The position numbers and the translations under genes were made by a program. Shown piece after piece: positions 1,455-63,291 of a stretch of DNA of 64,000 bases. The stretch lies in assembly GCA_001972305.1 (NCBI GenBank), contig BDDD01000554.1, positions 312,319-376,318 of the forward strand, written 5' to 3'. The stretch comes from Cephalotus follicularis (taxonomy: Eukaryota > Streptophyta > Magnoliopsida > Oxalidales > Cephalotaceae). Under the pieces are notes generated by a model, which did no database searches, was not told the DNA's origin, and was given only the letters and a program-made list of their open reading frames with translations. How positions within the stretch are numbered: the stretch's first letter is position 1; the number at the start of each line of letters is the position of its first letter.

Positions 1455-1604
1455 CGCATCGATGTCCTTGGAAAGACGTCGACGCCTATGGGAACCAAGA
1501 TGCACATGAATTCATGTACATGCACGTCGATGTAGGGCGAAGACATCGATACCTTCTTATGAAAGAGGAAAAGACATCGACGTCTAAGGAAAGACGTCGA
1601 CGCC
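1455..1604. repeat. palindrome doublets, upstream cluster, LTR B1
   Basis: Six imperfect copies of GACGTCGACGTC begin at 1455, 1475, 1522, 1542, 1573 and 1593. They form three doublets, each exactly 20 bp start to start. The copies differ mainly by C/T or G/A at CpG positions, and many stay self-complementary. The cluster lies in the first 320 bp of the LTR, before the likely promoter. Confidence 0.88.
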
Positions 1605-2339
1605 TTTGAAAATAACATTAGTCACGTTATGAACTGACAGCATAACATGCAATAGGGCAACTTTTGAGGCATCATCCTGGCATCGTTCCATGCACAATGC
1701 GATGTGTTGATCATGCTGGTGTGTTGCCAGGCATGCTCCAAAACGTGTTCCTCACCTGGTGCGTTCAAGGGCTGTGTCATCTCTTCACCTGTAACCAGCA
1801 GAAGAGGAAGGAAGGAGAGTCAAAAACAGAGAGGAGAGAAGAGGACACAAGTTTATGGATGCATGTGAAACAAGAGGAAATGGGAGGATTTCTGCCAGCA
1901 TAAAACACCTCTCCCTTCCCTCCTCCTCAGTTTAGCACTGTGAGAGAAAGAACAGACAAAGAAAAGGAGAAGATAGAACCACCATTGTCAAACTTGGTTG
2001 GAGCTTGGAACTTGGAGCTGGTGGCTTGCAGCAACAGGAAGGACCTAGAGGCTGCTCTAACCAGTTTGGAACGTAAAGGGGTGGACTTTCCAGTTCCTAA
2101 CATGGAACAACAAGGTAGGGGAAACTGATGATTCTTATACATGCATTTTGAGTTTTAAGATAATGAATGCCATTGATGAATTGCATGTTAATGGGTGAAT
2201 TGAAATCTCTGGACTTCTGTGATGACTGAGTAACCATGCATGTGTGATTACATGAATATGTGAACTGGTTTGTGTAAAGGATGGATTTGATAATGGCTTG
2301 GTGTGTTAAAACTGTAGAGAAAACGTTCTCGGTTGGATA

Positions 2340-2847
2340 GACGTCGACGTCTACATGAAGACGTCGATGCCTTCGTGTGTGGATGTGAAAGACGTCGATG
2401 TTTTGTAAAAACATCGATGCCTTTTCTGGGCATTGTAGAACAGTAATGTTATGCCTTCGTGTGTGAATGCAAAAGACATCGATGTCCTTTGAAAGACATC
2501 GATGCCTTTTCTGGGTATTGCAGAACAGTAGTGTTTACTTTGATGGTAAAATGCAATTGGTGGTCGCATGTTTTATTCATGCAACGATGTTCTGGTCACG
2601 TATTATGATAACCAGTAGCATGCCTTACACATTGAGAGGGTGAGATTCGCTTATATGAAGGAGTAAGGGCCGGATTCTACCCTCTAGAAGCAAGATTCGC
2701 GAACTGATACCTTCTGGTATCATAAAGACATCGACGTCTTTGGGAAAGCATCGATGTCTTTGGTCCAAAAATGCCTGGGAATAACTGTATGAATCGTTGG
2801 TGCCTTAGGGTAAAGACGTCGACGCCTTTGGGATAAGCATCGACGCC
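2340..2847. repeat. palindrome doublets, downstream cluster, LTR B1
   Basis: Ten more copies of the GACRTCGAYGTC motif begin at 2340/2360, 2391/2410, 2475/2495, 2727/2747 and 2815/2836: five doublets with spacings of 20, 19, 20, 20 and 21 bp. In most doublets the left copy ends GTC and the right copy ends GCC, so the doublet behaves as an ordered unit of about 40 bp. It lies after the promoter-like block, in what would be the transcribed leader. Confidence 0.88.
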
Positions 2848-3280
2848 TATCCCCCTGTTTGAAGAAATTTCGCTCGAACGGGACCCGCTAGACCCTCAAA
2901 CGACTCTAGAAATGATCCTAGATGCATTCTGAGCATATGTTTGCATTATTACTGAACTGTGAATTGCATTATGGTTTATTGCTAAAAAAAAGTGTTAACC
3001 ATTTTGAAAAGCTTGTATGATTATTATAATCATTATTGTAGGAAATTAATATTTGTCAACATATGAATATATATATTTTTGAAATGACTAGGGAAAGTAT
3101 TTTCCAAAGACGGAGAAATGTTTTAAAGGATTGGTTACACAATTCAAAATGTATTGTTTTAAGTTTTATAACTTATCACAACCTGAGAACGGATTAATAT
3201 ATTTTAAACAAATATATTTGATCAAGTAATCATATTTTATTGCTTGACTTGTACTGTACGATGTTTGTGCTTATTGATTA

Positions 3281-3369
3281 TTAGCCGCTGTGCTAATAAC
3301 CTGTTGATTGTTTGGCCGTCGTGCTAAGCAACCTGTACGGAGGACTTACTCCAAACCGTTCGCAAACGG
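3281..3369 (+). other. short stem-loop repeats near the 3' end of LTR B1
   Basis: TTAGC...GCTAA inverted repeats (3281-3296, and a weaker copy near 3311-3328) are followed by CCGTT-CGCA-AACGG (3356-3369). Three copies of the TTAGC unit and the same CCGTT hairpin occur in B2's 3' LTR at about 54970-55090. These could fold in RNA; a role in transcript termination or packaging is only a guess. Confidence 0.55.
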
Positions 3370-3635
3370 GGATGGGGTAAGAGTGCATGACGTTGGGGCA
3401 GGAGGTGGCGACGGTCATGATGACTTGTTTGTCTTGTTCCTTTTGGGACATACTTACTGCTTGTGTTGATGTAGCCTTACGAGGTTACACCTGTACTGTG
3501 AACATGCATATACTTTATACATGTACATACTGTGACATATATACTGCGACATATATATACTGTACTGCATCATAATGCATTCATTCATGTTGCTCATTAT
3601 CATATACCTCGAACTGTATTTATGAGTCTTTTCAC

Positions 3636-3660
3636 TTAGCCGAGTGAGGATAAAGGCTAA
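3636..3660 (+). other. conserved TTAGCC/GGCTAA stem in LTR B1
   Basis: TTAGCC and GGCTAA pair across a short loop beginning GAGTGAGGA. The same stem is kept at 55348-55372 (B2) and 59876-59900 (B3), although B3 is otherwise much diverged. Its conservation suggests a constrained RNA or DNA element about 200-400 bp before the LTR end. Confidence 0.55.
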
Positions 3661-3863
3661 CCCCTACTGTAACAGATTGATGGAGTGGGATTTGATATGG
3701 AGCAACGCAAGGAGACTTAAGGAGAAGACTGAGTTGTTCTCTTGTTTTATGTACTGGTTTACTGAACAATGATTATGATAATTGGATTATTGTAACGTGG
3801 TTTATTTCTTTCGTACTGTATTATCATGCTCCGTTTATGGGCGATGGACAACGGGGTGTGACA

Positions 3864-5633: not shown

Positions 5634-5972
5634 GGTATATGTATGTTTGTGAATTCGGGATGAAATCCTTTTTAAGAGGGCGTGGATGTAATACCCTACT
5701 TGTTCGTATATGCATTTTACGGACTTTTAAAATGTTTGTTTTCGGGCTTTTTAATTTGCTTTGATATGCAGTCCGGTTGCCCTGTGTTTTGGGCCTATGT
5801 GTTTTGGGCTGACTGATACCAGCCTGAACTTTGGGTATGTTGTTGGTATGTTAATGCATTGTTTTGCGTTAGGCCTATTTTTATGTCTTTTTATTTCATC
5901 AAACTTTATTATTATTTCTATTTTACTATTTTAAAAATTATTAAAACAATTTCTTTAATTTTAAAATTATTT

Positions 5973-6030
5973 TCCTTTTCTTTTCTTTTTTCTTTTCTTT
6001 TCTTTTTTCTTTTCTTTCTTCCCTCCTTTT
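5973..6030 (+). repeat. TTTTC-type pyrimidine tract in LTR A
   Basis: A run of CTTTT/CTTTTTT units with almost no purines. The 3' LTR at 17120-17160 has only a shorter version, so the tract varies in length between copies. It resembles simple-sequence growth in a leader or U3 region. Confidence 0.7.
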
Positions 6031-6857
6031 CTCTCCGTTTCCTGTAACTCTCTCTTCCTGTTCAATTTCACACGGTTTCCATCTCCTAAAAATCTACTTA
6101 TTTTCCTTATCTTACCAGATTTTGATTCTCCTTTTCCTTATCTCTTCCAAAATTCTCTCCTATTTTATGTTTATGAAGGGCATTGGGTTATTGATTTGTG
6201 CCATCCGTTTCTTTTCTCTGCTCACTACCGAATTTTGCAAGTTAGGATTTGTTTTGGTCCCTGTGAAGTGGCTTCATCATACAGTCCGGTTTTTAGTGGT
6301 AATCTCAATCCTTGTCGTTCAATTGAGTTTTGTTTTCCTCTTTCTGGAAATAAGTTGTGTATTGTTTTGTTTTGCTTCTCTTGTCCTATGACAGCCATGT
6401 CTAAGTCTTGAGCATTTTGTGTTCCTTCTACAGTTTGTAGACCATTGTAGATTACTAATCTTGCTATAATGGTTTGTTCCCCTTTGTTTTTTGGTTTCAT
6501 ATGCATATAGGTTGTTAGTGTCCTTTTGATTCCCATAATTGTGTTATGTCATGGTTTATCAAATTGTCATCATGTTTTAGACATCATAGACATGTTGTAA
6601 TATGGTTTTAATGTCTGTAAACGGTAATGGACAAATTTTTTTTGACTAATCTGTATGCATATGATTAGAGGTCTCTCTTGTCTCTTGAAATTAATCACTG
6701 TTTATATACTTCTTCTTGTCAATTCTGTATTTTTACACTGTCTAAACATCATATAAAGTCTTATGTATATGTTCATAGGTCTCTGGTATCGAGTTATGCA
6801 TGTTTAGACAAGTCTACGCATTGAAATGCTACGCTTTTGTTGTTCTGTCGTCCAGAA

Positions 6858-7063
6858 CAGTCGGCTATTTTTATAGACAGTCGGCTATTGTTGGTTGTGT
6901 AGTTGGCTGCCTTATGAAATAGTCGACTAGCTTACTTTGCATAGTCGGCTGGACCTCTGTCACAGTCGACTGCCTGCAGTTCAGTTTGTATAGTCGACTG
7001 GCCCTGATGATTAGTCGACTGCCAAGCTTCCATAGTCAACTGGAGCTTTGTAACAGTCAGCTG
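6858..7063. repeat. 21-bp palindrome ladder in the shared LTR A
   Basis: Ten copies of (C/T)AGTCGACTG begin at 6858, 6878, 6900, 6920, 6942, 6963, 6991, 7012, 7033 and 7054. Steps are 20, 22, 20, 22, 21, 28, 21, 21 and 21 bp. CAGTCGACTG is a perfect palindrome; the variants AGTCGGCT, AGTTGGCT and AGTCAACT are transitions of it. The 3' LTR repeats the same ten steps at 17987-18192. Confidence 0.9.
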
Positions 7064-8515
7064 TTTTGCCCAGAAAATTCTTGTTTTCATTTGTTTTGAT
7101 TCGTTTGCTGTTCGAATCAATCGGGGTCTGTCTTAAACACTGTTATAAATCTGTTTAATGTCTCTAATAATTCTCAGACCCTTATATGAATGGTTTTGTG
7201 TCTTTTAGATTGTTGTGCTTCAAAGGGGAGTTTGAATTAACAATCTTTTCGTAAGTACTTTTGTGAACGCATAAGGTACGGATTTCTATCGCTCTTTGGC
7301 CATCTGGTTTTATCGAATGAAAATCAGTTTTGCTTTTATGATATGTTCCTTTGGTTTTATGAACTCGATTATGTTTATGAATTTGATATGCTCTAGAAAA
7401 TAATGTCGGTTTTGACATTTTACGAATTTAAATTTCCTGACTTTAATATTTTGTTATGATACATTATGATATGTTATACGTTATGATCTGCTCGTTTATG
7501 GTGGGAAATAAATGATTTGATACTCCGATTATGACATGGATGTTATGTAAATGATATCGTTTGATAAAGATTTTTGAATATGTTTTGAAAAAGCATATTT
7601 TATGTGTTTCTAAATTGATTTTGATAAATCAATGTTTTGGAAGTGATAAAATACTGAGTATTTGTACCCTCCTATGGGGCGTACCATACGCATGTCGTAG
7701 GCCTGGCACGGGGACATGACACTTCCGTAGCGGTGTGATTAGTCTACGACGTCTCTCCGTGTTATGAATAAATCCCATGATGTGGATTTATGGATCCGCT
7801 ATGTATGATAGAGGCGTATGAATCGATTCTAGTATATGGCATATGTGATAAGATATGCAATGTGTAATATGATATGATATGAGAATTGACTTGTTTAGTG
7901 TCGTACACTTCAATTCTAATGGGCATGTGGAATTAGCGCCTCCCTTGCCATATATGTTTCTTATATGTGATAGGTTATGTGGCTCAATATGATATTATGA
8001 AATTTGTGATTTTGAAATGTTTCGTATATGTGTTTCGAAAGATATGAATTTTGGTTTTATGGAAGTTCGGATATAACTTCAACGAATGTTTAAACTGTTT
8101 TAATTGCTTAAGATTTCTCTTACAAGTTTTATTGAAATCTTACTGCTTTTGAATTATTGTTACTGTTTTATATTGTTTATCCGTACTGAGGTATGCCCAG
8201 CCGTGTTTGTTTTCCATGTGGTAGGTTATCAGGAGCAACGGGGGAAAGTGTGACTGAGAGATGGCCACCAATATGTCAAGGATCATTAGGAGTGTGATCC
8301 TAATATGTTTTCTCTTAGGAGTGGTTCTGAAAAATATGGTTTATGTTTTTGAATTTGACTTTTGGAAACTGTTTAAGTTTTCCAAATATGTTAGGTTTTA
8401 AGTTTTTAGATATGTTAAGACCGCCACGTTTTTAGCTAATAAGTTATGCTATGTTATGTTAGGATCTGTATTATGACCTGTGACGACTTTCGCCGTCCGG
8501 GGGTGTTACAGATTG

Positions 8516-12999: not shown

Positions 13000-13387
13000 G
13001 GAAATGGGTATCTATATGAGTATATGAGGGATGTGTACAATGCTGTAGCCCATGACCACGTTGATGGATCTTCAACGGAGTTGTTTTTTGTGCTTGCCGA
13101 GGTGGTTCTGGCTATGGAAGTGTGAGAGTAAGAAGCTTTCCTTAGTTTTGCCCATCCTCCCGACCTCGGACCAGCTCGGTCCCTGAAGATGTTTTGTCAA
13201 GTGAGCCCTAGTGGATCCCTTGGATACAAGGCCGGGGTGAGATTTCATCTCCTTAGTGTAAGTTGACTGTTGGAGGGACCTCGGGTAGTTGTCCCATGCT
13301 TGGCGTTTGTCCCCGGGACCTTGTGTTGATCCCAGGCTTAGCTTATGTTAAATATTGTCATTTCCTTGTGCTCGGGCATTTGCTTGT

Positions 13388-16741: not shown

Positions 16742-16746
<5 letters not shown>

Positions 16747-16834: not shown

Positions 16835-18486
16835 TGTAATACCCTGCTTGTTCGTATATGTGTTTTACGGACTTTTACTATGTTTGTTTTCGGGCTTTTT
16901 AATTTGTTTTGATATGAAGTCCGGTTACCATGTGTTTTGGGCCTATGTGTTTTGGGCCAACTGATACCAGCCTGAACTATGGGTATGTTGGTATGTTAAT
17001 GCATTGTTTTGCGTTGGGCCTATGTTTATGTCTTTTTATTTTATCAAACTTTATTATTTTTTCTATTTTACTTTTTTTAAAATTATTAAAACAATTTCTT
17101 TTAGTTTAAATTTTTATTTTATTTTTATTTTCCTTCTCTTTCTTCCCTCTTTTTCTCTCCCTCTCCCGTAACTCTCTCTTTGTCTTCAATTTCACACGGT
17201 TTCCATCTCCTAAAAATCTGCTTATTTTCCTTATCTTACCATATTTTGATTTTCCTTTCCTTATCTCTTCGGAAATTCTATCCTATTTTCTGTTCATGAA
17301 GGGCATTGGGTTATTGCTTTATGCCATCCGTTTCTTTTGTCTGCTCACTGCCGAATTCTGTAAAGTTGAGATTTGTTTTGTTCCCTGTGAAGTGGCTTCA
17401 TCATAAAGTCCGGTTTGTAGTGGTAATCTCAATCCTTGTTGTTCAATTGAGTTATGTTTTCCTCTTTCTGGCAATAAGTTATGTATTGTTTTGTTTTGCT
17501 TCTCATGTCCTGTGACAGCCGTGTCTAAGTCTTGAGCATTTTGTGTTCCTTCTACAGTTTGTATACCATTGCAAGTTAGTAATCTTGCTGTAATGGTTTG
17601 TTCCACTTTGTTTTTCGGTTTCATATGCATATAGGTTGTTTGTGTACTTTTGGCTTTGATTCCTGTAATTGTGTTCTGTCATGGTTTATCAAACTGTCAG
17701 CATGTTTTAGACATCATAGAAATGTTGTAATATGATTTTAATATCTGTAAAAGGTAATGGACAGAAAAATTGGACTAATATGTATGCATATGATTAGAGG
17801 TCTCTCCTGTCTCTTGAAGTTAATCACTGTTTATATACTTCTTCATGTCAATTATGTGTTTTTACACTGTCTAAATATCATATAAAGTCTTATGTATATG
17901 TTCATAGGTCTCTGGTATCGAGTTATACATGTTTAGACAAGTCTCTGCAATGAAATGCTAAGCTTCTGTTGTTCTGTCGTCTAGATTAGTTGGCTGTTTT
18001 TATGGACAGTCGGCTGTTGTGGGTTATGTAGTCGGTTGCCTTATGAAACAATCAACTGCCTTGCTTTGCACAGTCGGCAGGACCTCTGTCACAGTCGACT
18101 GCCTGCAGTTCAGTTTGTATAGTCGACTCGCCCTGATGATTAGTCGATTGTCAAGCTTCCATAATCGACTGGAGCTCTGTAACAGTCGGCTGTTTTGCCA
18201 GAAAATTCATGTTTTCATTTGTTTTGATTGGTTTGCTCTTCGAATCAATCGGGGTCTGTCCTAAAAAGTGTTATAAGTTTTTTTTATGTTACTAATAATT
18301 ATCAGACCGTTATATGAATGGTTTTCTGTCTTTTAGATTGTTGTGCTTCAAAGGGAGTTTGAATTAACAACTTTTCGTAAGTACTTTTGTGAACGCATAA
18401 GGTATGGATTTCTATCACTCTTTGGCCATCTGGTTGTATCGAATGAAAATCAGTTTTGCTTTTATGATATGTTCCTTCGGTTTTAT
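16835..18486 (+). repeat. 3' LTR of gypsy A, first part
   Basis: The first 1652 bp of the LTR, matching 5687-7365. It is cut after GGTTTTAT by the inverted solo LTR. It carries the ten-step palindrome ladder at 17987-18192. Confidence 0.92.
17987..18192. repeat. 21-bp palindrome ladder in the 3' LTR of A
   Basis: Ten AGTCGACT-type motifs start at 17987, 18007, 18029, 18049, 18071, 18092, 18120, 18141, 18162 and 18183. The steps (20, 22, 20, 22, 21, 28, 21, 21, 21) are identical to those in the shared LTR, although many motif bases differ. Confidence 0.88.
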
Positions 18487-34649: not shown

Positions 34650-34662
34650 TTCTACCCTCCTT
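34650..34662 (-). promoter_or_regulatory. polypurine tract of gypsy D
   Basis: Read on the minus strand it is AAGGAGGGTAGAA, directly before TGTAATGACC of the 3' LTR. It resembles the tract of family B. Confidence 0.88.
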
Positions 34663-46796: not shown

Positions 46797-48117
46797 TGTA
46801 ACGCCCGGTATTTTCGTGAATGTAATATTTCCATTTATGATGTAATCCTTAAACTTGATTTAATGAGAATGTCGAGTTTGAACTCAAAGGATGCTTACAA
46901 ACCCTACTTGTAGACTTGGAAATGGAATGTGTATGTTAAAGTTGAAACGGCAACGTTCTGGGGAAAAGACATCGACGTCTTTTGTAAAGACATCGACGCC
47001 TTTGGAAGCCAGGGCACACGTGAAGGAAGGGACATGCACGTCGACTTTGGGAGAAAACATCGACACCTTCTTACCAAACTGGAAAAGACATCGACGTCTA
47101 AGGAAAAGACGTCGACACCTTTGTAATAATGGCCAGCACGTTCTTCGTCGGCAGAAATACATGTGGGGAGAATTGTTTAGAGGCTTACCTAACGCCTTTT
47201 CGAGTGCGATTCGACGTGTTAAGCATGTCTGTGTACTGACCTGAAGCACTAAAACCTAACCTCACATGGAACATGCAAGGATTATGCCATCCTAACATGC
47301 AATCTGCAAAGGAAGAATAGAATATGAAAAGAATATGCAGAAAGAGAGGAAAGTGGGAGAGATCTCGGGTTGGCTTGTGTAATGACAAAAGGAAAAGGGT
47401 ATGAGGAAGCTATCTGCATAAGGATATTCCTCCCCACTTCTCTCTCTCGTTTTATAACACCAGAAGAAAGAGAGAAAGAAAAACCAGTGAGTGTGTGTGC
47501 CATTGGAGCTTGGAGCTTGGAGCTTGAACCTTGGAGTCACTGGTGCAGCTTCGGGACGGACCTAGAGAGGCTGTTGTGACCTGTTTGGATACTAAAAGAT
47601 GTGGACTTTCCAGTTCCTAATTTGGAACAACAAGGTAGGGGAAAGTGATGGACTTATATGTGCTTTTTAAGTTCTAAGTTAATGTATAGCATGGTGGATT
47701 GCATGTTAATGATTGGAAGTGTTACTGTGATACCCTAAATTGATCTTGCATGTATATTTGAAAAGCTTGCATGATTATTATGATCATTTGGGTACGAAAA
47801 TGTATATTTGTCAACATATGAAATTATATATTTTCATAATGTTTGGGGAAGTATTTCCAATGATAGAGAACTGTTTCAAAAGTTTGATTACAAAACCAAA
47901 TGTAATTTACGAAAATGTATAAATTATGGATGTATATATTTTTGAAATGATTGGGGAAGTATTTCCAAAGACGGGGAAATGTATTGTTTTAAGCTATGAC
48001 TTATTACAACTTGTGAACGGAAAAGTATATTTTAAACAAATATATTTGATCAAGTAATTATATGTAATTGCTTGACTTGTACTGTGAAATGCTTGTGCCT
48101 GTTGATTATTAGCCGCC
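46797..48117 (+). repeat. 5' LTR of gypsy B2, internally deleted and truncated
   Basis: It starts TGTAACGCCCGG right after the TTTAG duplication. The first 900 bp differ from the 3' LTR (53032 on) by about 14 substitutions by my count, plus a 21-bp deletion. At about 47750 some 600 bp (matching about 54013-54618) is missing, including the whole downstream palindrome cluster. Sequence stops matching the LTR at AGCCGCCGCG (48117), 780 bp before its expected end. Confidence 0.9.
46968..47119. repeat. palindrome doublets in the 5' LTR of B2
   Basis: GACRTCGACGYC motifs start at 46968/46989, 47036/47056 and 47087/47108: three doublets spaced 21, 20 and 21 bp, at the same places as in B1. Confidence 0.87.
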
Positions 48118-49215
48118 GCGCCCAGCCCTCGAGAAACAACGCCAGCTCGGACGCGTACCATGACCGCGTAGAGGAGGCGTAACCGGTATAATTTCCGGTA
48201 GACAACGACCTTCATCAGTCGTTAGGCCCAGTAACCCAGAGATAACAGAACTCCGTGTAAGTGAGGGGGTCCCCGTAACCGAGGTCGCCGGGATCGGGAT
48301 GGAGCGCAAGAGGAAGCTAGATAAACAAGGATATTCTTCCTGCTACCAATCAGTGCTGAATTCCTTTTGTTAAGTAACTAACGGTTCCTTGAATAGGTTC
48401 GATTCGTATATTACCTTATACGAGACTATGGTGGAGACAGTGTGGGGCAGAAAGTTTAGTGTATTTTCACCATTTCGTTAGTTGTATATTTAGACCGAAT
48501 ACGTTAAAATGGTATTTAAATTTGAAATACATAGGTTATTAGTGAACGCCTTCGTAAAGTTTCATTCGGCTTAATTTTTGTGTAGTGCGTAGGGTATGAT
48601 GCACTACGGGTTGTTCAATATTTATAGAGGTCCTATTGACGGTTAGCGGGTTCTGCCCCGCACTTTCATTATGTCATGTTCTATTGTTTATAGGTTGCAA
48701 TGTTGTTGGTTTATTGTACTATTTACAAGTTATTGGGTTTTATTCTCTTTTATTGTTCAGAAGAGAAATTTAGAGGCACGTACGAGGTACGGTTCTGATG
48801 AGGCAGTTAGACAATGTCATCCCCAATCGGAAACAGGATTGAGCCGATTCACTTATTTGGGTATTTATGTCAAGTCCATTATTCCGTTACTCATAGTACT
48901 CACTTACGTATTACTACTCGGTACAGTACATTAAAAGTATCATTTTTATGGAGGCATATATTTTTACATACGTACGAATGTCATGTTCATATTGAGTTTT
49001 CAATATAGTAGTATTGGTCATTTATACAAGGGTCTTTCCTTGGTCTGTCAGGTCAGCAGTATTGGCAGCGGTGGAGGACCGGGGTTGTAGTGCGTGAGAA
49101 TGAGGTAGGGGCAAACGCTTGCCAAAACCCCGTTCAGGAGGCATTCAACAAATCGTGCTGCCGATTTGGTTGTTGTTCAATGATCGTGCTACCGATTCAT
49201 TAGTTGTTCAATAAT
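48118..49215. other. unrecognised sequence between the B2 LTR and the gap
   Basis: About 1.1 kb that should hold the last part of the 5' LTR, primer site and start of gag, yet I find none of these clearly. A few strings recall the LTR (GTGCGTAGGGTATGATGCAC near 48584). Near the gap a direct repeat occurs (GATCGTGCTACCGATT with neighbours, 49150-49215). It may be rearranged element DNA or damaged assembly. I see no gene. Confidence 0.5.
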
Positions 49216-49324: not shown

Positions 49325-51422
49325 TTCGGTAGAGAGTCGTTAACACCGCAGTTCGAGAGGGGCCTTTGATCCACCCAAGACAGAGTACTTAGAGAGCTAT
49401 AGGGAACAAGATCTAGAGAAGATTTTCGCGGTGATGGACTGCACCGATACTCAGAAGCTGAAATTTGCAGTATACCGTTTATGGGGAGGGGCCACTCACT
49501 GGTGGGAGATGGTCAAGGAAAAGTGGGAGTCCACCGGACTTGACGCTACATGGGAGAGGTTCCAGGCAGAGTTCCTCGATTCCTATGTACCTCGGATGGA
49601 GCAAGAACGGAGGAAGAGTGAGCTCCTGGAGTTTCGGCAAGGGGAGATGTCTATGGCCGAGTACCAGGCCAGGTTTATGGAGCTATCCAGACATTCACCA
49701 TATCTGGTGGTTGATGATGTGAAAAAGATAAGGAGTTTTTTGAAGGGTTTACGACCGGACCTTCGGTCGAGGATTAGGGCTATGGAGCTGGGTACCTTTT
49801 CAGAGGTCGCACAGAAGGCGAGGCTGTTAGAGAGCATATCTGGTGAGGACCGAGCAGAGAGGGCTCGGGTGCAGCAAGTTAAACAGAACCCGACGAGACC
49901 AGCTTCTTCGAAATGGCAGGGTAGTGGTTCTCCGAGTAAGTCATCGAAGAACAGATTTGGGCAGACTGCCACGCTGAGGACTCCTAGTCAGGGGAGTAAT
50001 GCGGGAACCGGAGCCTATTATCACTGTGGTCGGAAGGGCCACTTGCAAAAGGATTGCTGGAGGATGAATGGGCTATGTTTGAGGTGTGGAGCAAGTGGCC
50101 ATTCAGTGAGGGACTGCCCGAAGGGTTCAGCTACAGCGCCTACTGGGCCGGGGAGCAGCAGTGGTGCGGCTGCAGGGCCATCACAGAGGAGAGATACCGG
50201 TAAGGGCCTCGCAAAAGGTAGAGTCTTTGTACTTGCTCAGACTGAAGTTCCAGAGTCGACTTCCGTTGTTGGAGGTACTCTGTATATATATGGTTATTCT
50301 TCTAGAGTACTGATGGATTCAGGTGCATCGCATTCATTTATATCTGCACATTTTGCATCTTGCTTAGATGTCACCCCTGACTGTTTGTCTTATACACTGG
50401 ATGTGAGTACACCGACTGGGACTTCTATGTATACTGACTCGGTATATAGGAGTTGTGAGATGTCTATGGCAGGCATTCCTCTATATGCAGATCTGATTGT
50501 ACTGCCTATTCGTGACTTTGATGTAATATTGGGAATGGATTGGCTATCGGCGCACCGCGCTCGTATGGATTGCTACCACAAGACTGTGGATTTTTGTCTG
50601 CCCGACGGAACTACTTTCCAGTTCAAGGGAGACAAGGGGTTCTTTACACCGATTATATCCTTCATCCGTGCGTCGAGGTATCTCGAGAAGGGATGCGAAG
50701 GATTTCTGGCTTATGTTATTGATCGAAGGAAGGAAAAAAGCTTGAGCTTGGAGGAAATTCCAGTTGTGTGCGAATTTTCGGATGTGTTTCCCGGCGACTT
50801 GGGATCCTTACCACCCAAGAGGAGTATGGAGTTCGTTATTGACCTTGTTCCTGGAACGGCTCCTATCTCTAAATCAACCTATCGGATGGCTCCGGCTGAG
50901 TTGCGAGAGCTGAAGCTACAGTTACAAGACCTGATTGACAAAGGTTTTGTAAGACCCAGTGTTTCTCCATAGGGTGCATCGGTGCTGTTTGTCAAGAAGA
51001 AGGATGGATCGATGAGACTCTACATCGACTACAGGATGCTGAACAAGGCAACTATCAAGAACAAGTATCCTTTGCCTCACATCGAGGATTTGTTCGACCA
51101 GTTGCAAGGAGCGAGGGTGTTCTCGAAGCTTGATCTGAGAACAGGATATCACCAGTTGAGGGTGAGGGAAGGAGATATTGAGAAGACTGCCTTCCGAACG
51201 AGATACGGTCACTATGAGTTCCTGGTAATGCCTTTTGGTGTTACCAATGCACCAGCTGCGTTCATGTCATTGATGAACGATGTGTTCCGACCATACTTGG
51301 ACAAGTTCGTCGTTGTGTTTATTGACGACGTACTTGTATACTCGAAAAGCGAGGAAGAGCATGCTTCCCACCTGAGGTTGGCTCTACAGATTCTCCGAGA
51401 GCACCAGCTATATGCAAATTAG
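49325..51422 (+). pseudogene. gypsy B2 gag, protease and reverse transcriptase
   Basis: The best preserved polyprotein frame in the window. The start of gag is lost in the gap and frame slips occur before 49400. From about 49400 it reads LEKIFAVMDCTDTQKLKFA, RFQAEFLDSYVPRMEQE and YQARFMELSRHSPYL (capsid), then two knuckles (YHCGRKGHLQKDC lacking the first Cys, and CLRCGASGHSVRDC intact near 50075). The protease shows MDSGASHSFIS near 50311 and VILGMDWLSAHRARMDC. RT follows in the same frame through a single TAG at 50970 (Trp in relatives): [23 protein letters not shown] and [13 protein letters not shown], with the catalytic motif intact near 51314. The frame ends at TAG 51420, where alignment breaks down. 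Confidence 0.92.
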
Positions 51423-52150
51423 TGTATGCTACGACTGACCTTGGGGCACGTCAGAGTGATAGAGGAAGTGTATGTCGGCTCGGTCGAACGAGCGTCTTAG
51501 GCACTGCACACAGCCATCTTTCACACGACTGAACCACTCAGATAGGTGCTATTGGGTGTGACGTAATACTGCCAAGGCTCAGTCTCCTTTTGGACTTTGC
51601 TTTAGGTAGCATTGTACAAGGGTGAAGGTGAGACCTTACCCGTTTCCGACATTGTTGGGACGGCCAGAGACCACGAGCCGGAATTGACAGACCGTTCAGA
51701 TTGTGAAACGGTGTTTGAGTCGCTAGAGGGCGAAGTACGGTCCGGTGGTTATTGTGAAGAAGTACAGAACTATGTAGAAGCACGATGGTCCTACTTACGA
51801 CATGTATCTAAATACTCGTGTCGCTTCATCTGGCTGGGAAGTTGAGTCCTAGTAAGCCTTCTGTGTTGGCAGGGGCTATAGAGTATTATGGTAGTAGTAC
51901 ATGAAACTTTAGTCTGAGGCTTAGATCTAAGAGAGCTTAGAAGGCATTGAGTCCTAGTACGCCAACACGGAGGAACTACGCTACATCATTGTGACCAAGA
52001 TGGGCGTACAGCCGATCTTTCTAGGGGCCACTGACTAACTTACCTCTGGTAAGAACCTTCAGAAGGTTGTAGAAGGTAACACTATGGTACCATGATCGTT
52101 CGTATCGGAACGCCGAGTTCTATGTGACAGAGATGCTATCTTCACTTCCA
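51423..52150 (+). pseudogene. gypsy B2 RNase H and integrase start, scrambled
   Basis: About 730 bp where relatives have roughly 2 kb. Short strings can be matched to expected sequence in order (CTTGGGGCACGT to the FLGHV codons; GCCGATCTTTCTAGGGGCCAC and GGAACGCC to integrase), but they are separated by many small deletions and no frame survives. The stretches on both sides are almost intact. Decay in place is possible, but the contrast suggests a faulty consensus. Confidence 0.6.
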
Positions 52151-52986
52151 ACTTCTGGAAGAGATTTCAGTCAGCCTTCGGGACGAAGCTGAACTTGAGT
52201 ACTGCCTTCCACCCTCAGACCGATGGGCAGTCTGAGCGTACCATCCAGACCTTGGAGGATATGCTACGGGCTTGCGTTATTGATTTTGCTGGTACCTGGG
52301 AGGATCATATTCCTCTGATAGAGTTCGAGTTTTCCTACAATAACAGCTACCACTCTAGTATCGGTATGGCACCGTTTGAGGCACTGTATGGGAGGAAGTG
52401 CAGATCTCCTGTATGTTGGGATGAGGTCGGGGAGCGACCTTTACTCGGGACAGAACTGGTGGAGGAAACTTCGGAGAAGATCAGGACGATCAAGAAGAGG
52501 CTGCTTGCTGCTCAGAGTCGGCAGAAGAGCTACACTGACAGTGTGAAGAGAAGGCCTCTGGTCTTTAGTGTGGGTGATCACGTGTTCCTGAAGGTATCAC
52601 CATGGAAAGGCGTGCAACGGTTTGGGAAGAAGGGCAAATTAGCTCCTCGCTACATTGGTCCTTTTGAGATTCTGGAGAGAGTCGGCGAGGTAGCCTATCA
52701 ACTTGCTTTACCTCCTGCACTGTCAAACGTGCACGACGTCTTCCATGTGTCTATGCTAAGGAGATATATCCCGGACCCGTCACATGTCCTGGATTATGAT
52801 ACTGTTCCGATGCAGGATGATCTATCTTGTGAGGAGTTACCTGTGCGGATTCTCGATCGGAAGATACAGACTTTGAGGAACCAAACCATTTCCATGGTCA
52901 AGGTCCAATGGGAGTTTCACAAACCTGATGAGGCAACTTGGGAGCGTGAGGAGGATATCCGAGAACGCTACCCGCATTTGTTTTAG
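52151..52986 (+). pseudogene. gypsy B2 integrase core and chromodomain-like tail
   Basis: From ATCTTCACTTCC (52138) on, the frame is open to TAG at 52986: [20 protein letters not shown] with the catalytic Glu, then [60 protein letters not shown] and the end [19 protein letters not shown]. The first two acidic residues fall in the scrambled region upstream (the second as TGACAGAGATGC near 52122). It is very close to B1's 430-1239 but without its stops. Confidence 0.9.
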
Positions 52987-53031: not shown

Positions 53032-53202
53032 TGTAACGCCCGGTATTTTTGTGAATGTAATATTTCCATTTATGATGTAATCCTTAAACTTGATTTAATG
53101 AGAATGTCGAGTTTGAACTCAAAGGATGCTTACAAACCCTACTTGTAGACTTGGAAATGGAATGTGTATGTTAAAGTTGAAACAGCAACGTTCTGGGGAA
53201 AA

Positions 53203-53354
53203 GACATCGACGTCTTTTGTAAAGTCGTCGACGCCTTTGGGAGCCAGGGCACACGTGAAGGAAGGGACATGCACGTCGACTTTGGGAGAAAACATCGACA
53301 CCTTCTTACCAAACCGGAAAAGACATCGACGTCTAAGGAAAAGACGTCGACGCC
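53203..53354. repeat. palindrome doublets, upstream cluster, 3' LTR of B2
   Basis: GACRTCGACGYC-type motifs start at 53203/53224, 53271/53291 and 53322/53343, spaced 21, 20 and 21 bp, mirroring 46968-47119. Confidence 0.87.
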
Positions 53355-54094
53355 TTTGCAAGAATGGCCAGCACGTTCTTCGTCGGCAGAATTACATGTG
53401 GGGAGAATTGTTTAGAGGCTTACCTAACGCCTTTTCGAGTGCGATTCGACGTGTTAAGCATGTCTGTGTACTGACCTGAAGCACTAAAACCTAACCTCAC
53501 ATGGAACATGCAAGGATTATGCCATCCTAACATGCAATCTGCAAAGGAAGAATAGAATATGAAAAGAATATGCAGAAAGAGAGGAAAGTGGGAGAGATCT
53601 CGGGTTGGCTTGTGTAATGACAAAAGGAAAAGGGTATGAGGAAGCTATCTGCATAAGGATATTCCTCCCCACTTCTCTCTCTCATTTTATAACACCAGAA
53701 GAAAGAGAGAAAGAAAAACCAGTGAGTGTGTGTGCCATTGGAGCTTGGAGCTTGGAGCTTGAACCTTGGAGTCACTGGTGCAGCTTCGGGACGGACCTAG
53801 AGAGGCTGCTGTGACCTGTTTGGATACTAAAAGAGGTGGACTTTCCAGTTCCTAACTTGGAACAACAAGGTAGGGGAAAGTGATGGACTTATATGTGCTT
53901 TTTAAGTTCTAAGTTAATGTATAGCATGGTGGATTGCATGTTAATGATTGGATTGAGATTATAGACTTGTTGAAGTGTTACTGTGATACCATAAATTGAT
54001 CTTGCATGTATGATTACATGGAATTGTGTATGGGGATGTATTTGAATTTGCCTGGCGTGTTAAAACCATGAAAACCCCGTTCTGTGTTGTAAAA

Positions 54095-54472
54095 GACATC
54101 GACGTCTTTGTAGAAGACGTCGACTGCTTTTCTGGGAAACCATTGTACTGTGAAATTTACTTCAGATGGCCATTTTAGCCACTTGGAATTACCTGTTGGT
54201 TTCGAATTGATGTTATGGTTGTATATATTCTTAACCAGTAGCATACCCTATACGTCTATGGAGTAAGATTCGTTTATATGATGGATTTAAAGGTTGGGTT
54301 TTACCCCCTAGGAACAAGACTGCGAACTGGTACTCCCTGGTATGAAAAAGACATCGACGTCTTTGTAGAAGACATCGACGTCTTTGTTCCAGAAAAGCCT
54401 AGGAACATTTGTGCATAGAACTGGCGCCTTAGGCTAAAAGACATCGACACCTTTAGGGATGACATCGACGTC
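54095..54472. repeat. palindrome doublets, downstream cluster, 3' LTR of B2
   Basis: Six motifs in three doublets start at 54095/54116, 54350/54371 and 54440/54461, all 21 bp apart. AAAGACATCGACGTCTTTG is the commonest form, nearly palindromic over 18 bp. This block is the one deleted from the 5' LTR. Confidence 0.88.
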
Positions 54473-55760
54473 TTTCCTCCTGGACAGTAGAATTTCACAT
54501 GAATGAGAACCGTTAGACCCGAAAAGACTCTAGAAATGAACCTAGATGCATTCTGAGCATATGTATGCATTGTTACTGTGACTTGCATTATGGTTGCTTT
54601 CCTAAAAGTGTTAAACCATTTTGAAAAGCTTGCATGATTATTATGATCATTTGGGTACGAAAATGTATATTTGTCAACATATGAAATTATATATTTTCAT
54701 AATGTTTGGGGAAGTATTTCCAATGATAGGGAACTGTTTCAAAAGTTTGATTACAAAACCAAATGTAATTTACGAAAATGTATAAATTATGGATGTATAT
54801 ATTTTCGAAATGATTGGGGAAGTATTTCCAAAGACGGGGAAATGTATTGTTTTAAGCTATGACTTATTACAACTTGTGAACGGAAAAGTATATTTTAAAC
54901 AAATATATGATCAAGTAATTATATGTAATTGCTTGACTTGTACTGTGAAATGCTTGTGCCTGTTGATTATTAGCCGCCGCGCTAATAACTTGTTGATTAC
55001 TTAGCCATCGTGCTAGTAACTTGTTGTTGGTTTAGCCGTCGTGCTAAACAACTTACGGAGGACTTGCCCCAAAACCGTTCGCAAACGGGGATGGAGTAAG
55101 AGTGCGTGACGTTGGGGCCAGGAGGTGGCGACGGTTATGACGACTGGATGTCTGGTTCCTTTCTGGGAACATATTTACTGCTTGTGATGATATAACTTTT
55201 GAGTTATACTTGTACTGTGAGCATGCATACATTTTTATATACGGAGGTATTTTTACTATGAAAATTACATGACATGGCTCATCATTATGCATTCACTCAT
55301 GATACTCATTGCCTTATTACCTGAACTGTATTTATGGGTTTATTCACTTAGCCGAGTGAGGACAAAGGCTAACCCCTACTGTAACAGATTGACGGAGTAG
55401 TCTTGGAATGAAGCATGCACGGAGATTTAAAGAGAAGACTTGTTATTTTCTCTTATTTTGGGTTATTGAACATTTATCATGTTGTTTGGATTTTGTAACG
55501 TTGGATATTTGTTATCTTGTGCTGTATTACTTTCACGCCCCGTCTTGGGCGATTGGCAGTTATCCTGGAGATATTTATAACTTGTTGGGCATCACGTAGT
55601 ATGGGATGCGTGATGTGTTTTTGATTCGGCTTACTTTGAAATGCTTCCGCAAGTGATTATTGGATACAGAAAGTTTAAATTTATGGTAAAATTGCATAAG
55701 CCGGATTTATATGTTGATTGCTTTACCACTTTTATGTGATTTGAAAGACGGGGTGTGACA

Positions 55761-57717: not shown

Positions 57718-57874
57718 TGTAACGCCCAGGATTTTCACGCGTTGTAATACTTTAATTCCAAATGTAATCTTGTTATTAAATTAATGAGAAAGAGGAATTT
57801 CCCAGCTATTATTTTGATATACAAATCAGATCAAAGTACTTAGATGTGTGATTACTTAGTATGTACACCAAAAG

Positions 57875-57954
57875 CAGTCGACTGGTACGATAGACCAGCT
57901 GACTAGTTGATTGTGTAATGGAACAGTCGACTGGTGGGATGAACCAGTCGACTG
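57875..57954. repeat. palindrome cluster, upstream, LTR B3
   Basis: CAGTCGACTG-type motifs start at 57875/57896 and 57924/57945 (both 21 bp), with a weaker TAGTTGATTG at 57904. Position in the LTR is the same as the upstream cluster of B1 and B2. Confidence 0.85.
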
Positions 57955-58826
57955 GCCAACTGTTGAGCCACATGGCAACGAACTGCCAGGCGAACAGCCG
58001 GTTGTTGGGTGTGGACAGCCAATTGGTTTGTGCTCTGTTTTGTTGCATGTGACGAGACCACATGCAACAACTGACAAGAGAAACTTTTCAAGTGCCATCT
58101 GATGCCAGATAAAACGTGTAGGACATTCACAGAACTGCTGGAACCTGCAAAAACTGAAGGGAAGAGTAGGAGTGACATGTGTGTGTGCATGCAAGTGATG
58201 GAGGGGAAATAATGGCATTTAGTGCCATGCAACGGGCTAAGGGAAAGAAGTGGCATAAAAACACTCTCCCCCTTCGCCTCTCTCACCAGCATCCGAACAA
58301 AAGGAAAACACAGTGAGAATTTGAGATGAGAAAGGTGGGAGAGGGATTTTGTCCAACTTTAGAACCAAGAAGGAGAGCTTGGAGAAGACAAATTCGAGCT
58401 ACTGGACTGGAGTTGGAGCTTCTGGGGAGCTCAGAACGTCACTGTTGGAACATAAAGAGGTGGACTTACAGATTCCTAACTTGGAATCAAAGGTAGGGGA
58501 AGTTATGTTTGTATTTTGAGCTCAAGATTACCATATGTTATGCGATCGCTTGCCTGGTTGTATGAGCTGTGATGTTTAGTTAATATGTCATGGTTACTAC
58601 TAGTTTTTCGTATGCCATGCTTACTGTTGAGAATTATTGGTTTTATGTACATGCATGTTGCATTTTATCTTGGTATTAAATTGCTAGATAAAATGCATGT
58701 TACTGTTGTGTTCTATGAACCTTTTGAGAACAGTTGGTTGATATTCTATCTTATGACTATATGTGGGTTGCTTGCAGTGATCCCTTTGGGTAATATTTCG
58801 GATCGCATGCAACTGGTTTCCCAGCA

Positions 58827-58992
58827 CAGTCGTCTGTCGAAGGAAGACAGCCGACCACTCAACCAAAACAGTCAACTGTTGAAGGATAACAGCCGACTGC
58901 ATGATGAAATAGTCGACTGGTAGAAGGAACCAGCTGACTACTCATGTACTAGTTATCCATAACAGTCGACTGTTGAAGGATCCAACAGACTG
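58827..58992. repeat. palindrome cluster, downstream, LTR B3
   Basis: Motifs start at 58827/58848, 58869, 58890, 58910, 58931, 58963 and 58983, with steps of 21, 21, 21, 20, 21, 32 and 20 bp. They occupy the slot where B1 and B2 carry GACGTCGACGTC doublets. Confidence 0.85.
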
Positions 58993-60302
58993 CCAAGCTG
59001 CTGTTTGGTTCTCTCTTGCATAAAACGATGCGCGACGATCCCAACTTTGTTTAGGATGCATTAGAGCATTTGTATGCATTGCATATGTGCTGTTTACTGC
59101 CTGTTTATTGATTGATTATAACTGTTTATGATTTCTAGATTACAATGTTAATTTGGGAATGCGTATGTGAAATCGAAAATGACTATTTTGAATACAAAAT
59201 AGTTATTTGATAATAATACATTTTTGAATAACCGGGAAAGTGATTTCCACCATACTGAACTGTTTAAAAGTATTTTCCACTACTTAAAATACATATTTCA
59301 AATGTTTTTGACTCTTGAAACATTTTGAAATAACTGTCTGTTGTCGATCTAACGATCACCACTGCACTGTTCACTGTGATGTTTCACTGTTTGCTCTGTG
59401 AATTTACTGTGTTTGTGCTTGAGTCTCTAGTTGCATGGCGGAGACTGCCAGCGCCGGCTAGTGGTAGGGTTGACCTAGGAGCCAAGAGTTGGTTGGGTAA
59501 CTCACTATACTGTACTGTTGTCTTGCTTGGTTGCCTGCAGTAAGGACCGAAGTGGAAGTGTAACATGGGGCCAGGAGTTGGCGACGTTACACGTACTACC
59601 TGCCTGTTGTGGTCCCTTTGTGGACTTACTGTACTGTTTACTGGTCCTGTTTAGACATTACTGTGCTTGTTGATGTAGCACTGGCTGGGATACTACTGTA
59701 CTGTTGTTGCATGCATATAATTTCATATATATATGTCCCTACTGTTATTCTACTGTACTACTATTTTATATATTTTTTCATATATATATAAACTGGTATT
59801 TTCTACTGCACTGCATCATCCACGCATACACCACATGACATGCACATAGTTTTGGTCCCAAATTACTTTTATGACTTAGCCGAGTGAGAACAAAGGCTAA
59901 CCCCCTACCTTACAGACTGATGCAGTGGACCGGTTGGACTAGCTTGGATGAAGAACAAGCCTTTATATTATTGTTGTTGGTTTTATATTCTTTTGGACTG
60001 TAATAAACTGGTTTTATCTTAAGGACTACTAATGTACCGTACTTTTGGTTTTGTTTAACGATAGGTTTTAATAATGTATTATGGATCACGCTTGGTTTTG
60101 TGGGCTTTTAACGTTGACAGACTTATATTTAGTAGCGTGTAGTATGGGATGCACGTTACGTGTTTTCAGCTTATGAGTTTAATGCTTCCGCAGCTACTAT
60201 CTTGTTTAAAATTTAAATTTTATGGTATTTGCATGAGCTGAATCTTAATGTTAATTCCCTTTACCACTTTTATGTGTGTCTACTCAAAAACGGGGTGTGA
60301 CA

Positions 60303-61916: not shown

Positions 61917-62081
61917 TGTTTAGCATAAAAATATGTTGTTTTTAATGAGTTATTTGTGATATTTTAATGCTTGGAATATATTACTTTGGTCGTGTAATGT
62001 TAATTTTCATGTTCAAGTCCAAAAAGACCAAAGTGCATGAAGAATGAGCTTAATTGGCAAAAATCTGCAGAAAACAGAGTT

Positions 62082-62485
62082 AAGCGTAGACGCCTAGTCC
62101 TTAAGCGTCGACGGCCAACCCTTAAGGACTGACGGATTCGAAGGATCGACGCTTTGCACTTGGATGAACAATTCTGTAGATTTTATGATTTTTGTCAACG
62201 CCAATGACTTTGGCGTCAACGTTCTGGGAATTCAACATTGAGATGTCGATGCCATAAGTTAGACATTAACGCCAAAAGTGCACAATTCGGACAGTAGCTT
62301 TAAGCGTTAACGCATGAAGAAAAAGACGTCAACACCACCTGCCTTCACGAGTTAAGCGTCGATGCCTTGATTATAAGCGTTGATGCTTAACACTTATATC
62401 AACCAAAGAATACAATGTACGAGTCAATGCTTAGCCCCTTTAAAGTCCCAAAGCGTCGACTCCCACGACTTAAGCATCGACGCTT
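62082..62485. repeat. palindrome doublets, upstream cluster, LTR F
   Basis: AAGCGTCGACGCTT-type motifs start at 62082, 62103 and 62124 (21-bp steps), with relatives near 62141, 62190-62215 and 62242/62262, then 62302/62323, 62354/62375 and 62451/62472, each exactly 21 bp. They end about 90 bp before the TATA box. Confidence 0.86.
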
Positions 62486-62573
62486 ACCACAGTAGCATAA
62501 TTGGAAAGTTTGGATTTTTTCCATTTTTGTAATTAGGGATGCTTTATTTTCCATTTTTAATCTGTTTTGCTTG

Positions 62574-62580
62574 TATAAAA
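62574..62580 (+). promoter_or_regulatory. TATA box of LTR F
   Basis: TATAAAA in TTGTATAAAAACACCACAAGG, about 660 bp into the LTR. It gives the plus-strand direction of this LTR. Confidence 0.65.
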
Positions 62581-62860
62581 ACACCACAAGGCCGGCCATA
62601 ATAGAGGGTAGAAGTAGTAGATGGTAGTAGCCTCCCTTTTTCTTCTTCATCAATTTTAGTTTTTATTACAATATTTAATAGCTAAATCTTTAGGGTTTTT
62701 AGGGAAGAACAAGCCTAGATTGTTATTGTTTCGACTCTGTCAATAAAATCGTTGAATTTTTTATTTGTTCTTCAATTTTCTACCTTCACACACACTTTCA
62801 CTATCTGATTAAAATCCACAAACATCTTGTCGGTGAATACAAACGTTGGTGAATGAATGG

Positions 62861-63035
62861 TTCTTAATGCAATCAATGGAGTCTACTCATCCGGTTTGTC
62901 ACAACGAACACACTTCGTATAGACCTAGCATGACTACTCATACATCTTGCTACTGCTGCCGTACTTCGTATAGACCTAGCATGACTACTCATACGTCTTG
63001 TCATCACAGTTGCACTCCCTATCGACCTAGCTACC
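62861..63035 (+). repeat. 51-bp tandem repeat in LTR F
   Basis: Two good copies of ACTTCGTATAGACCTAGCAT plus GACTACTCATAC start at 62912 and 62963, with a partial copy before them and a diverged one at 63014, all in 51-base register. Confidence 0.78.
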
Positions 63036-63206
63036 GTTGGTTATCAAGGTTTGATCATTCAAGTAAGTGAGTTGTTCAATACAATCCATGGTGAGTTTAT
63101 ATACCCTAAAACCGCTTTTCTCTTATATATTTCCATTAGTTTATTTTCTGCTTTGAGTAGTTCATAATTTGCATGCTTTATTTCTATTTATTAGCATAAG
63201 TGCTTT

Positions 63207-63291
63207 AACCATTGACGCATACCTTGTAAGCGTCGACGCTTTCCTACTTTACCTTTATTCACGTCGACGCCTTGACAAAGCATTGATGCCT
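63207..63291. repeat. palindrome doublets, downstream cluster, LTR F
   Basis: Motifs start at 63207/63228 (21 bp) and 63259/63278 (19 bp). The copy at 63228 is the perfect palindrome AAGCGTCGACGCTT. Confidence 0.82.

What the first reader, a model, noticed from the sequence alone, without database searches (positions are those of the whole stretch)
1455..63291. Several LTR families share one design: TCGA-centred palindromes phased at about 21 bp
LTRs A, B, B3, D and F carry different short palindromes: CAGTCGACTG (A and B3), GACGTCGACGTC (B), and the AAGCGTCG(A/N)CGCTT group (D and F). All are GTCGAC- or CGTCG-like, and their starts lie about 20-21 bp apart, mostly as doublets, in more than 60 motif pairs I measured by position. 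Two turns of B-DNA are 21 bp, and 21 nt is also a plant small-RNA length. Sequence differs while spacing is kept, which suggests selection on geometry: for example, paired binding sites for a dimeric DNA-binding protein, or hairpins in the transcript. I know of no named element of this kind, though I cannot search for one.
Basis: partly seen in the sequence, partly recalled or inferred. Interest (0 to 1): 0.88.

Follow-up and report, generated by a model that had tools for sequence, protein, structure and literature searches.

The report
Swappable 21-bp palindrome arrays in LTRs
Many retrotransposons in a plant genome (probably the Albany pitcher plant) carry, in their control regions, rows of short mirror-image DNA sites set about 21 letters apart; related elements can carry a different version of the site in the same place, which suggests landing pads for DNA-binding proteins that the elements depend on.

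Summary
LTRs A, B, B3, D and F carry arrays of near-palindromes around a GTCGAC core in three classes: CAGTCGACTG (A), AAAGACRTCGAYGTCTTT (B), AAGCGTCGACGCTT (D). In 7 LTRs, 34 of 59 adjacent gaps are 20-22 bp; random placement gives 6.0, at most 14 in 2000 trials. The arrays are not one spread repeat. LTRs with homologous flanks carry different classes in the same slot: B-type backbones hold class B, A or D, and F-type backbones hold D or B. F elements are a distant Ty3 lineage. Cores are more conserved than spacers between subfamilies but less conserved between same-family copies. Site halves do not covary, so selected RNA hairpins are unsupported. Best reading: cooperative sites for dimeric DNA-binding proteins, probably host-encoded, with classes exchanged over evolution. 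Closest known kind: Sirevirus palindromic repeated motifs (Ty1/copia). The binding protein and function are unproven.

The parts
1285..3863 (+). LTR B1 (3' LTR of a truncated chromovirus whose integrase end is at 559-1236)
   Evidence: TGTAAC...GTGACA ends read; SH3_Tf2-1 and a Chromo match below its cut-off upstream
1453..1607 (+). B1 array 1, class B, doublets about 20 bp apart
2338..2850 (+). B1 array 2, class B, doublets 19-21 bp apart
46797..48122 (+). LTR B2 5' copy, truncated and internally deleted
46966..47122 (+). B2 5' LTR array, class B
49344..52986 (+). B2 internal coding: gag, protease, RT, integrase C-terminus with SH3 and chromodomain (Ty3 chromovirus)
   Evidence: Pfam
53032..55760 (+). 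LTR B2 3' copy
53201..53357 (+). B2 3' LTR array 1, class B, 21-bp doublets
54093..54475 (+). B2 3' LTR array 2, class B, 21-bp doublets
57718..60302 (+). LTR B3 (no internal region seen), backbone homologous to B, inside a minus-strand copia element
57875..58026 (+). B3 array 1, class A, gaps 21-28-21 then 50-21 (weak sites)
58827..58993 (+). B3 array 2, class A, gaps 21,21,21,20,21,32,20
5687..8510 (+). LTR A, copy 1
6858..7064 (+). LTR A array, class A, residuals to a 21-bp lattice 0 or -1
16835..22405 (+). LTR A, copy 2, interrupted by solo LTR A2
18007..18193 (+). LTR A copy 2 array, class A
18487..21248 (-). solo LTR A2 with 5-bp target duplication TTTAT; about 63% identical to A
19914..20078 (-). 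A2 array, class A; lacks two units (about 42 bp) relative to A
39805..41863 (-). LTR D 5' copy
41409..41805 (-). D 5' LTR array, class D
32670..34652 (-). LTR D 3' copy
34217..34530 (-). D 3' LTR array, class D
61917..63484 (+). LTR F (boundaries inferred by eye from relatives L016, L018, L019; near-matching 5-bp flanks TCAAT/TCAAA)
62082..62486 (+). F array 1, class D
63207..63292 (+). F array 2, class D, gaps 21-31-19

Best explanation
The arrays are cis-acting landing platforms in the LTR promoter and leader of Ty3/gypsy retrotransposons. Each site is an imperfect dyad around GTCGAC read as two half-sites, most simply by a homodimeric DNA-binding protein. Sites sit about 21 bp (two helical turns) apart, so neighbouring dimers lie on the same face of the DNA and can bind cooperatively, often as doublets separated by about 30 bp. 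At least three flank classes exist (CA.., AC.., GC..), and LTR lineages have changed class in place. The simplest reason is a small set of related trans-acting proteins in the plant, shared by distant element lineages, that the elements use for expression. Shown: sites, spacing, conservation between subfamilies, class replacement on homologous backbones. Inferred: protein binding, dimer, cooperativity, host origin and benefit to the element.
For: Spacing: 34 of 59 gaps 20-22 bp against 6.0 expected; sequence-blind lag peak in window and in 200 kb elsewhere; over window and sample 153 of 257 within-array gaps are 19-22 bp, 2 are 9-18, 0 are 23-26, 22 are 27-33 (related copies included). Dyad spacing stays near 21 bp although palindromes are 10, 14 or 18 bp long, with class B the broadest at 19-22. 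Selection: between subfamilies, aligned core positions match 0.80-0.89 against 0.59-0.70 in spacers and core CpGs are kept 0.69-0.71 against 0.30-0.32. Class replacement in the same slot. Of 14 clusters with at least 4 near-exact sites, 12 hold one class only. Same class in distant lineages: RT of F relative L016 and of B only 36% identical. No detectable covariation of half-sites, as expected of separate protein contacts. Of 31 ORFs given to Pfam, 20 matched, all with gag-pol-type domains, and 11 matched nothing, so no element-borne factor was seen.
Against: No binding, expression or methylation data. The phase test on longer gaps is broad (R 0.29-0.32 for any period 10.25-11.25) and does not single out 10.5 bp. 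Constant spacing can also be inherited from old 21-bp tandem duplications: neighbouring class A spacers are somewhat more alike (0.458) than spacers of different loci (0.359). After removal of strong partners there is no leftover excess of weak sites at 21 bp. In the conservation test, 20% (A) and 39% (B1 array 2) of core positions fell in gaps and were not counted. In same-family copies, core columns differ more than the rest even outside CpGs (0.139 against 0.070, 0.145 against 0.056, 0.017 against 0.009), which is unexplained unless CpGs were lost in both copies. Many LTR pairs are related, so counts are not independent. RNA folding is better than shuffles in 4 of 6 segments.
Confidence: 0.55

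Rival explanations
1. Minisatellite-like arrays: a 21-bp unit multiplied by slippage or unequal exchange; the spacing is a fossil of duplication and only the palindrome is kept. The palindrome may still be a protein site, but the geometry is not selected.
For: The A versus A2 indel is about 42 bp, two units; an 85-bp duplication in B1; a repeated array with near-identical gap patterns in L018; D 41410-41465 is a 97% tandem repeat; neighbouring spacers 0.458 against 0.359.
Against: Spacers are otherwise nearly random, residuals to a 21-bp lattice are only 0 or -1 in the 7 runs examined, a second discrete gap of 27-33 bp recurs in all three classes, and spacing is about the same in three classes with different palindrome lengths.
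Confidence: 0.27
2. RNA-level hairpins: the transcript folds at single sites or doublets to aid packaging, dimerisation or small-RNA production, a role suggested by the title of a 2016 paper on Sirevirus LTR palindromes (seen only as a citation).
For: z-scores -2.7 to -6.0 in 4 of 6 array segments; B, B3 and F have a second array downstream of the TATA-like box, thus probably transcribed (positions read by eye).
Against: No covariation between arms in any of 5 families (observed pairs within the permutation range), A.C mismatches 68 against G.U 39 overall (reversed in A/A2, 7 against 14); 2 of 6 segments have z of -1.5 or weaker; the upstream arrays are probably not in the main sense transcript.
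Confidence: 0.08
3. Element-encoded factor system of the VANC type: a protein made by the elements binds the arrays of its own family to counter silencing, and protein and motif change together.
For: Family-specific motif arrays in non-coding DNA that change as a set between related elements, as described for VANC targets (passages of PMC5735166).
Against: Only gag-pol-type domains in the 20 of 31 ORFs that matched Pfam; the same class is used by distant lineages; core CpGs decay about as fast as other LTR CpGs in same-family copies (0.45, 0.56, 0.82 against 0.53, 0.38, 0.83 kept). VANC21 motifs are reported in one orientation, and no palindrome is mentioned in that paper.
Confidence: 0.07

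Closest known systems
Sirevirus repeated motifs (RM boxes), Bousios et al. 2010, PMC2829016 (abstract passages and section 9 seen)
   Same: Multi-copy palindromic boxes in LTRs, family-specific sequence around a shared core, most in the upper half of the LTR upstream of the TATA box; at least 8 copies per element.
   Different: Sireviruses are Ty1/copia and all but one of the RMs share a CGG-CCG signature; here Ty3/gypsy (chromovirus B and distant lineage F) with a GTCGAC core. The table lists Vitis CGGTCGACCG and Tnd-1 ACAATCGATTGT, the nearest in sequence by eye. A fixed 21-bp lattice and class exchange on one backbone are not in the section read.
VANC target motifs of VANDAL transposons, Hosaka et al. 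2017, PMC5735166 (passages seen)
   Same: Short motifs in dense non-coding arrays, enriched in one TE family, units diverging together between related copies.
   Different: VANDALs are not LTR elements (recalled); the VANC21 motif is a 9-mer in one orientation; the element encodes VANC. No such gene was seen here.
Tandem cis-boxes in U3 of plant retrotransposons such as Tnt1 and Tto1 (recalled)
   Same: Repeated short boxes act as transcriptional enhancers.
   Different: Two or a few copies in one element; no palindrome lattice shared across lineages (recalled).

Membership tests
Sirevirus RM boxes | Element belongs to the Ty1/copia genus Sirevirus | tested here: not met
   B2 has Ty3-type gag/RVP_2/RVT_1/SH3_Tf2-1/chromodomain; F relative L016 has RVT_1 and rve
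Sirevirus RM boxes | Palindromic box with dyad symmetry | tested here: met
   Family logos and pair counts
Sirevirus RM boxes | CGG-CCG core | tested here: not met
   Core is GTCGAC in all three classes
Sirevirus RM boxes | At least 8 copies per element | tested here: met
   14, 11, 9, 9, 8, 8, 11, 9 and 13 sites in B1, B2-3', B3, A, A copy 2, A2, D-5', D-3' and F; 5 in the truncated B2-5'
VANC target arrays | Element encodes a VANC-type DNA-binding protein | tested here: inconclusive
   No such domain in the 31 ORFs given to Pfam, but copies are decayed, 11 ORFs matched nothing, and not all frames were scanned
VANC target arrays | Motif bound by protein in vivo and in vitro | not testable with these tools
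   Needs ChIP or EMSA
21-bp minisatellite | Whole unit, spacer included, is repeated | tested here: not met
   Spacer columns carry about 0-0.4 bits in class A of LTRs A/A2; some local unit duplication exists
Ty3 chromovirus (element B) | Chromodomain at the integrase C-terminus | tested here: met
   PF00385 at 9.4e-06, just above its cut-off, in 52096-52986
Athila/Tat lineage (element F) | Primer-binding site of the TGGCGCCGTTGCC type (association recalled) | tested here: inconclusive
   Follows the F-like LTR in L016 with one mismatch and in L019 with more; an exact copy lies in L015; no phylogeny was made

The most novel reading that the evidence does not exclude
The plant carries a small set of related dimeric DNA-binding proteins with a common GTCGAC core and different flank specificities. 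Distant LTR-retrotransposon lineages are each tuned to one of them through 21-bp-phased arrays and repeatedly change class in the same LTR slot: a plant analogue of a trans-factor/retroelement arms race or licensing code, readable from sequence alone.
Probability: 0.3. Interest if true: 0.9.

Novelty: new variant of a known kind. Interest (0 to 1): 0.72.

Why it matters
Palindromic LTR boxes were reported as a Sirevirus-specific feature without experimental proof of function (PMC2829016, section 9). Here the same kind of design is common in Ty3/gypsy LTRs of one genome, crosses distant lineages, and has classes that replace each other in the same slot while spacing stays near 21 bp. That makes a standing question testable: who reads retrotransposon promoters in plants, and do elements and readers coevolve? 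The abundance (15,918 exact copies of one class B 18-mer against 62 for its reversed control) gives a ready bait for finding the protein.

Tried and rejected
Strict palindromes only: only a slight excess, because most sites are degenerate. RNA hairpin selection: rejected on covariation, though folding energies are mixed. Weak-partner test: no residual excess at 21 bp, so hidden degenerate partners are not claimed. Helical-phase test of longer gaps: inconclusive. Single-linkage clustering of masked 1.5-kb flanks put 35 of 36 regions into one component, because flanks run into neighbouring elements; it could not count backbones, so the case against one spread repeat rests. Relatives in viral contigs by RT protein (3 pattern stretches, none confirmed) and by a class B doublet pattern (0) found nothing. 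Literature: searched the held open library; no paper describing such arrays in Ty3 LTRs was seen in their listings, several of which were capped (one search listed 10 of 23, one search listed 15 of 16, one search listed 15 of 62 for motif letters, all of other subjects by title). Bousios 2016 was seen only as a citation in PMC5311732 and was not read. A DREB-type (RYCGAC) reader was considered from memory and not adopted: several class B sites read ATCGAT and lack that core (by eye).
Full report
What is in the window. The 64-kb window is plant DNA made largely of nested LTR retrotransposons. It lies at G000:C554:312319-376318 of a 1.577-Gb assembly. The gag-protease ORF of element B matches its 16 top-ranked proteins at 74-94% identity, all named Cephalotus follicularis, so the host is very probably that species. 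Element B2 carries gag, protease, RT and an integrase end with SH3 and chromodomain, a Ty3 chromovirus. A, B and D share 63-70% nucleotide identity in coding stretches. B3 is an LTR inserted in a minus-strand copia element. F has no second copy in the window, but L015, L016, L018 and L019 share its LTR at 68-82%. The F-like LTR in L016 is followed by TGGCGTCGTTGCC, a one-mismatch form of a TGGCGCCGTTGCC primer site, and the exact form lies in L015. The RT of L016 is only 36% identical to that of B over 145 residues, whereas A and B share 66% over 82 residues.

The observation. With degenerate matching, each LTR is rich in one of three motif classes. Cross-matches are few, except between B and D, whose cores are alike (B1 has 9 class D matches, F has 4 class B), and 3 class B matches in A. 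Adjacent gaps are 20-22 bp in 34 of 59 cases in seven LTRs, against 5.96 on average and at most 14 in 2000 random placements with the site length excluded (clusters under three sites and three sister LTRs were left out). Because class A cores are only 10 bp, gaps of 11-18 bp were possible but none is among the 59. A scan that knows no motif, only 'two similar near-palindromic 10-mers', gives 15 pairs at lag 21 and 4 at lag 20 against 0.3 each; none of the 20 pairs at lags 19-22 lies outside the LTRs.

Twenty 10-kb stretches were taken from contigs C10 to C485, every 25th contig at one fixed offset; they are systematic and from large contigs only. The same blind scan gives 10, 14, 28 and 10 pairs at lags 19, 20, 21 and 22, against 0.45-0.65 each, with secondary peaks at 41-42, 48-52, 61-64 and 69-74. 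Of the 62 pairs, 27 come from L013, which holds two copies of one array, so counts are not independent; the other 35 come from 11 further stretches. By eye, 2 of the 62 pairs lack a GTCGAC-like core in both members, 3 more in one member, and one is an off-register double count; nothing in the scan asked for that core. Arrays of three or more sites occur in 11 of 20 stretches. CAGTCGACTG is the commonest palindromic 10-mer with at least 4 G+C in the sample (36 copies; next 6). Class A, B and D sites number 60, 77 and 69 in 200 kb against 7, 3 and 0 for reversed motifs; a site can count in both B and D.

Gap grammar. In window and sample together, 153 of 257 within-array gaps up to 130 bp are 19-22 (class A 64, B 45, D 44), 2 are 9-18, none is 23-26 and 22 are 27-33. 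Of the remaining 80, most bunch at 42-53 and 62-74; 4 lie at 34-40, 5 at 84-91 and none at 54-61 (related copies included). In 7 runs the sites keep to a 21-bp lattice with residuals of 0 or -1. Dyad-to-dyad distance is near 21 bp for palindromes of 10, 14 and 18 bp, though class B is broader (19-22), so it is not palindrome length plus a fixed spacer. B1 doublets are 19-21 bp (mostly 20), B2 doublets 21 bp. A phase test on longer gaps was broad and does not prove a 10.5-bp period.

Selection. Between subfamilies, which I take to have diverged while elements were active, aligned core positions are better conserved than spacers and the rest: A against A2 0.80, 0.587, 0.625; B1 against B2 0.887, 0.702, 0.715 (array 1) and 0.825, 0.639, 0.727 (array 2). 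Core positions that fell in gaps were not counted: 20% of A, 39% of B1 array 2. Between same-family copies the order is reversed: A copies 0.83 against 0.92-0.93, D 5' and 3' LTRs 0.83 against 0.93. Core CpGs are kept at 0.69-0.71 against 0.30-0.32 between subfamilies, but in same-family copies about as often as other CpGs (0.45, 0.56, 0.82 against 0.53, 0.38, 0.83). In those copies the non-CpG core columns also differ more than the rest (0.139 against 0.070, 0.145 against 0.056, 0.017 against 0.009), which I cannot explain except by CpGs lost in both copies. I read this as cores that mutate fast, decay once an element is dead, and are held by selection while it lives. It gives no sign that arrays are lastingly shielded from methylation after insertion.

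Class replacement. B1/B2 and B3 LTRs are collinear homologues (blocks of 63-83%) with arrays between the same blocks, yet B1/B2 hold class B and B3 holds class A. L025 from 8750 on is a third homologue: B3 1-107, 364-514 and 547-810 align at 64-73% to L025 8750-8856, 9074-9217 and 9289-9567, and between the first two lie class D sites at 8886, 8907 and 9006; the first two align with the first class B doublet of B2 (91 bp, 69%). L018 aligns to F on both sides of array 1 (F 18-162 at 81.5%, F 572-1266 at 77.4%) but holds class B where F holds class D; by eye the last doublet sits at the same place in both. Conversely A2 and B3, and D and F, share a class on different backbones; their only BLAST matches start in the arrays, and that of D and F runs about 55 bp past the last site. 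Of 14 clusters with at least 4 sites within one mismatch, 12 hold one class and 2 have a single off-class site; the more degenerate arrays are not in this count. This is not one repeat that spread.

RNA or protein. If transcripts had to fold, arms should covary and G.U should be preferred over A.C. In none of five families do standard pairs exceed permutations of the halves (fractions of permutations reaching the observed count 0.22-0.95), and A.C mismatches total 68 against 39 G.U, although A/A2 alone has 14 G.U and 7 A.C. Folding energies beat shuffles clearly in 4 of 6 segments and not in 2, as palindrome-rich DNA would. Half-sites with conserved sequence and no covariation point to protein contacts.

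Mechanism. I commit to dimeric DNA-binding proteins on same-face cooperative sites, probably encoded by the plant, because distant Ty3 lineages use the same few classes and no extra DNA-binding domain was seen: of 31 ORFs given to Pfam, 20 matched, all gag-pol type, and 11 matched nothing. Since cores are kept between subfamilies, binding presumably helps the element, most simply by driving transcription. The binding protein, its host origin and the effect are inferred, not shown. The strongest rival is that spacing is inherited from 21-bp duplications; local duplications exist and could explain part of the regularity.

Known kinds. Sirevirus repeated motifs (PMC2829016, section 9 read) are palindromic, family-specific, share a core and sit in LTRs upstream of the TATA box; they are stated there to be Sirevirus-specific among the Ty1/copia elements compared. 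The present arrays fail two of their defining features (lineage and CGG-CCG core) but are built like them. VANC targets (passages of PMC5735166) are the closest for coordinated motif change, in a different transposon type. I therefore call this a new variant of a known kind.

Noticed in passing
13371-13647 and 13983-14267: Two GC-richer minisatellites (27 bp x 10 and 36 bp x 8) in the internal region of element A, between stretches that are adjacent in the upstream copy (3882-4108, then 4128).
   Followed up: no
2066-2123, 47585-47650, 53820-53885, 58445-58507: A block with AAGGTAGGGGAA, splice-donor-like by eye, is far better conserved between B and B3 LTRs (79-83%) than other aligned blocks (about 60-71%); it lies between the two arrays.
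   Followed up: partly
4128-8510 and 15198-22405: Element A looks like a tandem pair sharing an LTR (internal-LTR-internal-LTR), 89-91% identical.
   Followed up: partly
16747-16775: A 29-nt run of G just upstream of the second A LTR.
   Followed up: no
L018:1551-2418: A class B array repeated about 581 bp further on with nearly the same gap pattern.
   Followed up: partly
1453-2850 and 53201-54475: Doublets are mostly 20 bp apart in LTR B1 but 21 bp in the homologous LTR B2, as if spacing had shifted together at several doublets.
   Followed up: partly
L020: This stretch holds several class A arrays and no class B or D site; its backbone is only weakly related to B (60-69% in short blocks) and was not resolved.
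   Followed up: no
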